Assembly: GCA_012735405.1 (NCBI GenBank)
Contig: JAAYHM010000152.1
Location: 1 to 57,499 of the forward strand
Direction: 5' to 3'
DNA length: 57,499 nt
From: Tissierellia bacterium
GTDB taxonomy: Bacteria; Bacillota; Clostridia; Tissierellales; Tepidimicrobiaceae
The notes beneath the pieces were generated by a model. The model saw nothing but the letters and a program-made list of their open reading frames with translations, was not told the origin of the DNA and did not search any database. The first letter of the stretch is position 1; each line of letters starts with the position of its first letter. Below are positions 48,111-57,499 of this stretch, piece by piece. A program made the translations under genes and the position numbers.

Positions 48111-48117
48111 TAAGGCT

Positions 48118-49347
48118 GTGATAAAAGTGAGAGTAGATAAAAATGAAAATATTTTACTCCCTAGTAGTAATTACAATAAGATAATAAAAAAAGGTGATAT
48201 ATTAACAGGTAAAATTTTAGATATTAGGGGTAAAATGGTTTTTCTTCATATTACTGGATTGGGAACTCTAAAGGCATTGAGTAATACAGAAGTAAAACCC
48301 TATTTAGGAAAAGAAATAAGATTTGTTGTAGAATCATTTAATAATAAGATTTTGAAAATAAAGCCAGATATAAAAAATGAAGTATTTGACCAAGAGGCTT
48401 CTTTTAAAAAAGAAGAATATGCAGATAATGTATTCAGCCAATTTAATATTGAAAAAACTCCACTTAATGAAGAATTTGTAAAAAGTCTTATAGAATATAA
48501 TGTTAAGCTTAATGAGGAAAACCTTATACAAGGCATAGGTTTAATTAAGTCCATTAAAAATATATTGTCAAAGGATAATGAGTATAACTCCACAGTAAAA
48601 TATTTTTTAGAGGATAAAGGTATAGAACTACTTCCAAAAGTAGTAGCCTTTTTTATAAAACATAATATTAAACCTACATTTAATAATATTGTATATTTCA
48701 TAGAATTGAATACAGACTTGGAACTTTTTTCAAAAGATTATGAAATATTAAAAGATTTTATCAATAAAGAGTTTACAAATTACTTTAAAAATATTATTAT
48801 AAGTAGTGAAGCTTCACAAAGTATTATAGAAAAAAGCAAAGCCATTTATTTTTATCATATAAAACAAATATTAAAATTTGCAAAGGATGAGAAACATAAG
48901 TCCGGCAAAGAAATCTACAGTACTATAAGAAGGTTTGAAGAAAAACTAGAGCTAATAAAGGAACTAAACAATAATTTAACCTTCATATTTCTACCAATAG
49001 ATTTGAGAAAAGATATAAATAGCATTATAGCCTTGGTTAAAAAGAAAAGACATAAATATGATTATCAGGATGCTATAAATGTATTTATTAATTTAAAAAC
49101 AAAAAATTTGGGTAAAGTAGAAATTTCCATAAATGTAATTAATACGGATATGAATATAGTGTTTAGTAATTTAAATGAAGAAGACAGAAAATATTTCATA
49201 ACAAAAGAAGAAGATCTAAAATCGGTACTTAAATATATGGGTTACAATGTTACTTCAGTCAAATATGTAGATAAAAAGGCTTTGAATATACTTGATACTT
49301 TAGCTGTTAATCCAAATCCATTATATTGTTTAGATATTAAGGTGTAA
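48118..49347 (+). CDS. FliK-like protein of unknown function (YlqG position)
   Basis: A 409-residue protein with no signal peptide. The N-terminal part (about 15-85, GDILTGKILDIRGKMVFLHI) is beta-rich; the middle is helical; the C-terminal part (about 325-409) resembles the C-terminal domain of flagellar hook-length protein FliK. Position between rnhB and an FlhB C-terminal-like gene matches ylqG of Bacillus. No flagellar genes are in the window. GTG start with a weak AAGG site, so the start is uncertain. Confidence 0.7.
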   Translation: MIKVRVDKNENILLPSSNYNKIIKKGDILTGKILDIRGKMVFLHITGLGTLKALSNTEVKPYLGKEIRFVVESFNNKILKIKPDIKNEVFDQEASFKKEEYADNVFSQFNIEKTPLNEEFVKSLIEYNVKLNEENLIQGIGLIKSIKNILSKDNEYNSTVKYFLEDKGIELLPKVVAFFIKHNIKPTFNNIVYFIELNTDLELFSKDYEILKDFINKEFTNYFKNIIISSEASQSIIEKSKAIYFYHIKQILKFAKDEKHKSGKEIYSTIRRFEEKLELIKELNNNLTFIFLPIDLRKDINSIIALVKKKRHKYDYQDAINVFINLKTKNLGKVEISINVINTDMNIVFSNLNEEDRKYFITKEEDLKSVLKYMGYNVTSVKYVDKKALNILDTLAVNPNPLYCLDIKV

Positions 49348-49350
49348 GAA

Positions 49351-49641
49351 ATGAAAGAACATAGGAAAACAAAAATTAACAAAGCAGTTGCCCTTTCTTA
49401 TAAAAAGGGATACAATGCACCAAAAGTTCTAGCAAAAGGTAGAGGGGAAGTTGCTGATAATATAGTAAAAATTGCAGAGAAAAGCCAAGTAAAGATTTTT
49501 AAAGATGAAAACCTTGTAGAAGAGCTAATTAAACTGGATATATATGAAGAAATTCCTCCTAGTTTATATGAAGCAGTAGCTAATATTATTTATTTTGTTT
49601 ATAAATTAGATAGAGAAAAGGAAGAGCAGTATGCGAAATAA
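49351..49641 (+). CDS. FlhB C-terminal-like protein (YlqH/EscU-YscU family)
   Basis: 96 residues matching the cytoplasmic domain of the export switch FlhB: KAVALSYKKGYNAPKVLAKGRG and EDIPP-like EEIPPSLYEAVANII. The autocleavage motif NPTH of full FlhB is absent; the sequence reads INKAVALSY. No transmembrane part is present. It follows the FliK-like gene by three bases and overlaps yraN by 11 bases, so both are probably translated together. In flagella FliK acts on FlhB; here the pair stands alone. Confidence 0.85.
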   Translation: MKEHRKTKINKAVALSYKKGYNAPKVLAKGRGEVADNIVKIAEKSQVKIFKDENLVEELIKLDIYEEIPPSLYEAVANIIYFVYKLDREKEEQYAK

Positions 49642-49987
49642 TAGAAATAAAGGCATAATTGGAGAAAATTTAGCAGTAGAACATCTTGTAAATAAGGGAT
49701 ATGGAATATTAGAAAGGAACTATAGAACCAAAATTGGGGAAATCGATATAATTGCTATAAAAAATAATACACTAATATTTGTTGAAGTAAAAACTAGAAC
49801 TAGTGCAAACTTTGGTTTTCCTTATGAAGCAGTTAATAAGAGGAAATTTCATAAGATTTTAAAAACTTCCCTTGTTTATATAAAACAAAAGGGCTATAAA
49901 GGATATCAGGTAAGATATGATATTATTGAGGTGTTTTTGTCTAATAAGAGAAAAATAAATCATATAGAAAATGTTTTTTGTTTATAA
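49631..49987 (+). CDS. yraN: YraN family endonuclease-like protein
   Basis: UPF0102 protein of 118 residues with a restriction-endonuclease-like core: GENLAVEHLVNKGYGILERNYRTKIGEIDIIA and FVEVKTRT, giving the E...D...ExK pattern. Function unproved. Found beside competence genes comM and dprA. Confidence 0.92.
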   Translation: MRNNRNKGIIGENLAVEHLVNKGYGILERNYRTKIGEIDIIAIKNNTLIFVEVKTRTSANFGFPYEAVNKRKFHKILKTSLVYIKQKGYKGYQVRYDIIEVFLSNKRKINHIENVFCL

Positions 49988-56832: not shown

Positions 56833-57499
56833 ATGACAGAGACATTATTGCAAAAAACAAGGAGATTAAATAAAACATTACAAAGAACAGGTGGAAAGCC
56901 AGTTTCATTCCAAGAACTGAGCGAAATTTTAAGCGATATATTAGATGCTAATGTGTATATTGCTAGCAGAAAAGGAAGAGTATTAGGCTATGCTTTGAGC
57001 AATGGTAATGACTGTGATGTTATACAAGCTGAAATTGTAAAAGAAAAAAGATTCCCAAAAGAATATAATGATGAATTGTTGAAAATTAGTGAAACTAAAG
57101 AAAACTTTCAGGAAATTACTGAATGTGTATTTGATCATGAAACAGAATGCCCATATCCAGACAAAATTGTAACCATTATACCTATTAACAGTGGTGGTGA
57201 AAGGTTAGGTACACTAGTTATAGCACGATATGGAAGGGATTTTACAGAAGATGAATTGGTTTTGGCTGAATATAGTGCTACAATAGTTGGAATGGAAATA
57301 TTAAGGTCTAAGAATGAAGAGATAGAAGAAGAATCAAGAAAGAAAGCAGTTGTTCAAATGGCAATTGGCACCCTTTCTTATTCAGAACTGGAGGCTATGG
57401 AACATATATTTAAGGAATTAGATGGTGATGAAGGATTAATTGTAGCCAGCAAGGTAGCTGATAGAGTAGGTATTACCAGATCAGTTATTGTTAATGCCT
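56833..57499 (+). CDS. codY: GTP- and branched-chain amino acid-sensing repressor CodY (cut by the window edge)
   Basis: The 222 residues present cover the N-terminal GAF domain ([39 protein letters not shown]) and the first part of the winged helix ([22 protein letters not shown]); about 40 residues are missing past the edge. CodY represses nutrient-uptake and biosynthesis genes when GTP and Ile/Leu/Val are plentiful. ATG follows AGGAGG, 15 bases after hslU. The gene order hslV-hslU-codY equals clpQ-clpY-codY of Bacillus. Confidence 0.96.

What the first reader, a model, noticed from the sequence alone, without database searches (positions are those of the whole stretch)
48118..49641. Stand-alone FliK-like/FlhB-like pair in a housekeeping operon
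A FliK-like 409-residue protein is followed three bases later by an FlhB C-domain-like protein that lacks both the membrane part and the NPTH autocleavage motif. FliK acting on FlhB is the substrate-switch of flagellar export; the pair here is separated from any flagellar gene and sits among ribosome-assembly, RNase HII and competence genes. The same order (ylqG-ylqH) in Bacillus suggests long conservation of an undescribed function. This is my best candidate for a real unknown system.
Basis: partly seen in the sequence, partly recalled or inferred. Interest (0 to 1): 0.6.

Follow-up and report, generated by a model that had tools for sequence, protein, structure and literature searches.

The report
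FlhX spare export-gate domain with FliK-like partner
These two coupled genes encode a detached copy of the part of the flagellar export gate that receives hook proteins, plus its own FliK-like switch protein; the pair was found only in bacteria that have flagellar genes, so it is probably an accessory part of the flagellar export switch, not a new system.

Summary
A FliK-like protein (48118-49347; true start probably 48127) is followed three bases later by a 96-aa FlhB C-domain protein without membrane part or NPTH. The claim that it stands apart from flagella does not hold. In the order, 61 of the 63 listed genomes with the stand-alone domain also have full FlhB; the other two have flagellar rod/hook genes. 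In 199 phylum genomes only one lacks FlhA while keeping the domain, and it too has rod/hook genes. In relatives this gene block runs through codY straight into flgB; the window ends inside codY. The small protein is FlhX (H. pylori HP1575, the published 'spare part'), so it is already known. Less described: a FliK-like gene sits directly upstream of FlhX in most of 80 loci from many phyla. It keeps the FliK switch fold and FliK's switch-critical last five residues, but in the window and 40 other partners of 88 carries a folded S1-like domain where FliK has its ruler. FlhX keeps the early-substrate pocket of FlhB. Best reading: an accessory, exchangeable specificity-switch module of the flagellar exporter. 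The biochemistry is inferred, not shown.

The parts
48118..49347 (+). YlqG: FliK-family (T3S4-domain) protein, 409 aa as listed; start more likely GTG 48127
   Evidence: ORF; PF02120 314-382 E 3.6e-5; profile comparison with canonical FliK; fold
48169..48375 (+). N-terminal S1-like OB-fold domain of YlqG (model residues about 18-86)
   Evidence: AlphaFold strands 28-83; Foldseek/VIA matches to S1/eIF2alpha/exosome OB folds; absent from 30 canonical FliK proteins
48976..49269 (+). T3S4/FliK_C switch domain of YlqG (model residues 287-384)
   Evidence: AlphaFold; best PDB matches 5cuk PscP and 2rrl FliK_C
49330..49344 (+). C-terminal last-five-residue motif LDIKV-COOH
   Evidence: pattern [LIVFM][DNSE][LIVFM]x[VIALT]-COOH in 54/68 partners, 27/30 canonical FliK, 60/943 background ORFs
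49351..49641 (+). YlqH = FlhX: stand-alone FlhB_CC domain, 96 aa, no transmembrane part, no NPTH
49417..49422 (+). A23-P24 of FlhX = Salmonella FlhB A286-P287 of the early-substrate pocket (with A77 and I80 = A341 and L344)
   Evidence: alignment numbered from NPTH; pocket residues from PMC13344023
47499..48110 (+). rnhB, conserved upstream neighbour in the same tight gene run
49631..49987 (+). yraN (UPF0102), overlaps the end of FlhX by 11 bases
56833..57499 (+). codY (cut by the contig end): last gene before flgB-flgC-fliE-fliF... in relatives

Best explanation
The pair is an accessory module of the flagellar type III exporter. YlqH (FlhX) is a soluble, ready-cut copy of the FlhB C-terminal cleavage fragment. 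It keeps the pocket that docks rod and hook proteins and probably takes the place of, or competes with, the fragment that FliK ejects from the gate. YlqG is a FliK paralogue that keeps FliK's switch fold and switch-critical last five residues but has a folded S1-like domain and helices where FliK has its secreted ruler. It is probably a cytoplasmic partner that binds FlhX and delivers it to, or removes it from, the gate, so tuning or resetting the early/late export choice. Shown here: homologies, pocket and tail conservation, pair conservation, dependence on flagellar genes. Inferred: binding, delivery and the direction of the effect.
For: Order sample: of the 63 listed genomes with the stand-alone domain, 61 also have full FlhB and the other two have rod/hook genes. 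Phylum sample: about 130 of 170 FlhA-positive genomes have two or more flhB_rel matches; the one FlhA-negative genome with a match has rod/hook genes; Fisher p about 1e-15. A FliK-like gene lies directly upstream of FlhX: 46/69 by Pfam, 69/71 by leave-one-out profile, with gaps mostly -17 to +30 bases, i.e. likely translational coupling. Early-substrate pocket in 98 FlhX: A 93%, P 100%, A 91%, fourth position L/F/I in 89% (pocket from PMC13344023). Last-five motif shared with canonical FliK; in Salmonella these residues matter for switching and are proposed to eject FlhB_CCD (PMC10965912; PMC13344023). The YlqH-type protein HP1575 'acts as a spare part' when FlhB_CC is deleted (Wand 2006, title cited in PMC3040844; function of the cleaved domain in trans). 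T3S4 fold of YlqG. The host has its own FlhB, FlhA and FliK.
Against: No binding or phenotype data for YlqG or YlqH were found in the searched library. About a quarter of flagellated genomes lack the pair, so it is not essential. The fused AlphaFold model gave low confidence at the YlqG tail and the junction, and no confident YlqG:YlqH interface could be read from it. PF02120 is below its curated cut-off for YlqG.
Confidence: 0.6

Rival explanations
1. Pure backup: FlhX is a spare FlhB_CC and YlqG only stabilises it; no regulatory role in normal cells.
For: Published 'spare part' result for HP1575 (title); absence from about a quarter of flagellated genomes.
Against: A pure backup would not easily explain a conserved, distinct FliK paralogue, often with its own OB domain, and intact last-five motif, nor FlhX-specific fixed residues that differ from FlhB (KGxG for KGxD).
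Confidence: 0.2
2. A housekeeping or RNA-linked function unrelated to flagella: S1-like domain plus operon with RNase HII, YraN and ribosome genes.
For: N-terminal OB fold like S1/eIF2alpha; conserved rnhB and yraN neighbours.
Against: No genome lacking flagellar genes was found to keep the pair; elsewhere the pair sits beside chemotaxis or flagellar genes.
Confidence: 0.07
3. YlqG is the working hook-length ruler and the pair is the main switch of this organism.
For: T3S4 fold and tail motif.
Against: A canonical FliK sits before flgD in the same genome (C221); 77 of 120 order genomes have a FliK match over the cut-off; the YlqG N-terminal part is modelled as a folded OB domain plus helices, mostly at pLDDT 70-92, not as a disordered secreted ruler.
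Confidence: 0.05
4. Evolutionary relic held by linkage to the neighbouring fla/che operon, with little function.
For: Close linkage in this clade.
Against: FlhX is kept far from the flagellar genes in other genomes (for example G150 and G276) with the partner gene still next to it (L059, L061), and the pair is kept across phyla; invariant residues and pocket.
Confidence: 0.05

Closest known systems
FlhX (H. pylori HP1575/flhB2, C. jejuni Cj0848c, TIGR00789 flhB_rel)
   Same: Stand-alone FlhB_CC-sized protein, no NPTH, no membrane part, separate gene; listed as a flagellar export component
   Different: The window protein scores 94.8 bits against a TIGR00789 cut-off of 117.35, but only 1 of 199 phylum genomes passes that cut-off. 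The FliK-like partner, OB domain and tail motif are not part of the FlhX descriptions I could read; one paper names a 'flhX-fliK' pair in Campylobacterota.
FlhB / SctU export-gate switch protein
   Same: C-terminal CC subdomain: fold (Z 9.6 to 3b1s_D, rmsd 1.3 over 59 residues), pocket residues
   Different: No transmembrane domain, no NPTH autocleavage site, no strand before the cleavage site
FliK hook-length control protein (and PscP-type injectisome rulers)
   Same: C-terminal T3S4 fold, sequence profile, last five residues
   Different: N-terminal S1-like OB domain plus helical middle in place of the secreted ruler; outside the flagellar operon; partner is FlhX
ylqG-ylqH of Bacillus
   Same: FliK-like/FlhX order kept in the Bacillaceae-type loci of the scan; RNase HII is the commonest upstream neighbour over all loci
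   Different: Neighbour tallies include ATP-grasp/CoA-ligase genes (sucC-like) besides yraN; the gene names and the sucC position in B. subtilis itself are from memory

Membership tests
FlhX (stand-alone FlhB_CC homologue) | Homologous to FlhB from just after NPTH to the end | tested here: met
   PF01312 262-335, E 1.6e-17; alignment to FlhB_CC with only single-residue loop gaps; 3b1s_B hit E 5.2e-9
FlhX (stand-alone FlhB_CC homologue) | Separate gene without membrane domain and without NPTH | tested here: met
   96-aa ORF; NPTH in 0 of 98
FlhX (stand-alone FlhB_CC homologue) | Score over the curated TIGR00789 cut-off | tested here: not met
   94.8 against 117.35 bits; but 1 of 199 genomes passes, so the cut-off looks too strict for this phylum and I do not treat it as defining
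FlhX (stand-alone FlhB_CC homologue) | Replaces FlhB_CC in trans in flagellar export | not testable with these tools
   Needs genetics; reported for H. pylori HP1575 according to the cited title
FlhB | N-terminal transmembrane domain | tested here: not met
   96 aa, only the C-end of PF01312 matched; full FlhB is on contig C27
FlhB | NPTH autocleavage site | tested here: not met
FlhB | Early-substrate pocket A286/P287/A341/L344 | tested here: met
   A23, P24, A77, I80 in the window protein; conserved in 98 FlhX
FliK | C-terminal T3S4 switch domain | tested here: met
   PF02120 below cut-off but profile-profile probability 96.5 and top fold matches 5cuk and 2rrl (Z 6.3, weak on its own)
FliK | Conserved last five residues | tested here: met
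   LDIKV-COOH; 27/30 canonical FliK share the pattern
FliK | N-terminal secreted ruler region | tested here: inconclusive
   Model shows an OB domain and helices instead; the OB profile is found in 41/88 partners and 0/30 canonical FliK; secretion itself cannot be tested here
FliK | Encoded in the flagellar operon | tested here: not met
   Canonical FliK sits before flgD on C221; in relatives YlqG-YlqH lies 8 kb upstream of flgB

The most novel reading that the evidence does not exclude
FlhX and its FliK-like partner form a dedicated second specificity switch found across many phyla: an exchangeable gate domain plus a cytoplasmic T3S4 carrier that lets the exporter be reset from late to early mode. 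The shared last-five motif (L-D-I-K-V-COOH) resembles the FlhB strand left after autocleavage (A-D-V-I-I-T-N-COOH), so FliK-type tails may act by replacing that strand. The strand part is not supported so far: the AlphaFold fusion gave low confidence there.
Probability: 0.25. Interest if true: 0.75.

Novelty: new variant of a known kind. Interest (0 to 1): 0.45.

Why it matters
The flagellar switch is described as irreversible and as made of one FliK and one FlhB. A widespread, coupled pair made of just the two interacting halves (gate fragment and switch domain) suggests that many bacteria carry spare or regulatory copies of the switch. In 2026 the FlhB fragment was reported to be the inhibitory part that FliK ejects (PMC13344023), so a free copy of that fragment with its own FliK-like partner makes the question 'can the switch be reset?' directly testable in Bacillus.

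Tried and rejected
(1) Flagellum-independent function: rejected by co-occurrence. Three apparent exceptions (G141, G110, G064) proved to carry rod/hook genes. (2) YlqG tail as a strand donor to FlhX, tested by folding the natural in-frame read-through fusion (TAA read as Gly, alignment A6): tail and junction pLDDT under 50 in parts, only an isolated bridge at residue 409, and the VIA match covers 419-477 only: inconclusive, kept only as a hypothesis. (3) IS66 TnpB, DUF6240 and Csl4 hits to YlqG: E 0.012-0.025, below cut-offs. (4) A single origin of FlhX: tree of 112 rows on 97 columns not resolved. (6) A first fused alignment (A5) misplaced partner C-termini onto FlhX and was discarded.

Full report
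What is there. The window encodes rplS-rbgA-rnhB-[48118-49347]-[49351-49641]-yraN-comM-dprA-topA-hslV-hslU-codY on the + strand. The two genes of the finding are as described: 409 aa (GTG) and 96 aa, three bases apart; the second overlaps yraN by 11 bases. The AAGG at 48112 favours a start at 48127 for the first gene (406 aa; inference).

Identity of the small protein. It matches FlhB/SctU only from just after the autocleavage site to the end (PF01312 262-335, E 1.6e-17; TIGR00789 flhB_rel 94.8 bits). Its closest solved relatives are the cleaved FlhB_CC chains (3b1s_B, E 5.2e-9; VIA Z 9.6, rmsd 1.3 over 59 residues to 3b1s_D). In an alignment of 31 FlhB and 98 stand-alone proteins none of the stand-alone ones has NPTH. 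The four residues of the Salmonella early-substrate pocket (A286, P287, A341, L344; PMC13344023) correspond to A 93%, P 100%, A 91% and L/F/I in 89%. In the window protein they are A23, P24, A77 and I80. This is FlhX, named in flagellar gene surveys (PMC10746217, PMC9321776, PMC4894983) and studied in H. pylori as HP1575, reported as a 'spare part' that permits flagellar export when the FlhB_CC domain is deleted (Wand et al. 2006; read only as title, and as cited for function in trans).

Identity of the large protein. Pfam FliK (PF02120) hits residues 314-382 with E 3.6e-5 but under the curated cut-off. The family profile aligns with canonical FliK proteins of the same order at probability 96.5 over 74 columns. 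An AlphaFold model of the C-terminal 131 residues (pLDDT 80) has as its two top Foldseek matches the PscP switch domain (5cuk) and the FliK C-domain (2rrl) (E-values weak), and 2rrl is first by VIA (Z 6.3). That Z alone is modest; its weight comes from the agreement with the sequence evidence. The N-terminal part is modelled as an S1-like OB fold followed by helices (OB matches). A profile of this N-domain is found in 41 of 88 partners but in none of 30 canonical FliK proteins, so YlqG is a FliK paralogue with a different front end.

The tail. The last five residues follow a pattern, hydrophobic-[DNSE]-hydrophobic-x-[VIALT]-COOH: LDIKV here, 54 of 68 partners, 27 of 30 canonical FliK, against 60 of 943 background ORFs, which include some partners themselves. 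In Salmonella the last five residues of FliK are important for switching (PMC10965912) and were proposed in 2026 to act on and eject the cleaved FlhB domain (PMC13344023). YlqG therefore keeps both known switch elements of FliK.

Is it tied to flagella? The window's own genome has full FlhB, FlhA and a canonical FliK next to flgD. In 120 genomes of the order, the stand-alone domain is listed in 63; 61 also have full FlhB, and the two others (fragmented assemblies) have flagellar rod/hook genes. In 199 genomes of the phylum, 170 have FlhA; about 130 of these have two or more flhB_rel matches (taken as stand-alone plus full FlhB, since the match list was cut), and the single FlhA-negative genome with a match, G141, has six rod/hook-type matches. 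Fisher p values are about 2e-17 and 1e-15 (species are not independent, so these overstate). No flagellum-free carrier was found. About a quarter of flagellated genomes lack the pair.

Where it sits. In this clade the order continues ...hslU-codY-flgB-flgC-fliE-fliF-fliG-fliH-fliI-fliJ; in L037 flgB starts 8.3 kb after FlhX on the same strand. The window simply ends inside codY. In another family of the order the pair lies next to cheR/cheW/cheA, and fliT, ycgR (PilZN) and flgE/F/G-type genes are among the neighbours in other loci of the wide scan. In other lineages it is far from the main operon, so linkage is common but not universal.

How widely is the pair kept? One genome-collection scan gave 80 loci from Bacillota, Campylobacterota, Aquificota, Nitrospirota, Thermodesulfobacteriota and other delta-type groups, Omnitrophota and beta-/gamma-proteobacteria. 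Nearly all are stand-alone domains. In 68 of them a candidate partner lies directly upstream; of these 68 plus the window and two order-level loci, 69 of 71 were recognised as the YlqG family by profiles trained without them or their near copies (46 of 69 by Pfam). Gaps are mostly -17 to +30 bases, which suggests translational coupling.

Mechanism proposed. Shown: homology, pocket and tail conservation, pair conservation, dependence on flagellar genes. Inferred: FlhX acts as a free FlhB_CC that can dock rod/hook substrates and take the place of the fragment ejected by FliK, and YlqG is its cytoplasmic FliK-like partner that loads or removes it. The alternatives (pure backup, housekeeping, main ruler, relic) are weighed in the rivals. 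A structural idea, that the FliK-type tail imitates the FlhB strand A-D-V-I-I-T-N left after autocleavage, was not supported by the fused model (low confidence) and stays a hypothesis.

Verdict. Observation correct; interpretation as an unknown flagellum-independent system not supported. FlhX is known; the conserved, distinct FliK-paralogue partner and its retained switch elements are the less described part.

Noticed in passing
L218:2299-4668 (- strand; genome G063): A third FliK-domain protein of 789 aa lies next to a flagellin gene; similar ORFs of about 790-810 aa with a FliK domain occur in several genomes of the window's family and nearby families, but no third match was found in the window's own genome.
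   Followed up: partly
L042:15736-17752 (- strand; genome G043): Both genes of the pair are split by frameshifts in this genome; it may be sequencing error or decay.
   Followed up: partly
Genomes G005, G010, G027, G040: Each has two stand-alone FlhB C-domain matches, i.e. two FlhX copies in one genome.
   Followed up: no
L113:1136-2497: In an Aquificales contig full-length FlhB is directly followed by FlhX (gap 39 bases), without a FliK-like gene between.
   Followed up: no
L146, L151, L158, L174, L176, L178, L185: In Nitrosomonas-type and Vogesella loci the FliK-like partner lacks the five-residue tail motif (ends such as VQHDDSE).
   Followed up: no
window 48112-48129: Start of the FliK-like gene is probably GTG 48127 rather than 48118.
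   Followed up: partly
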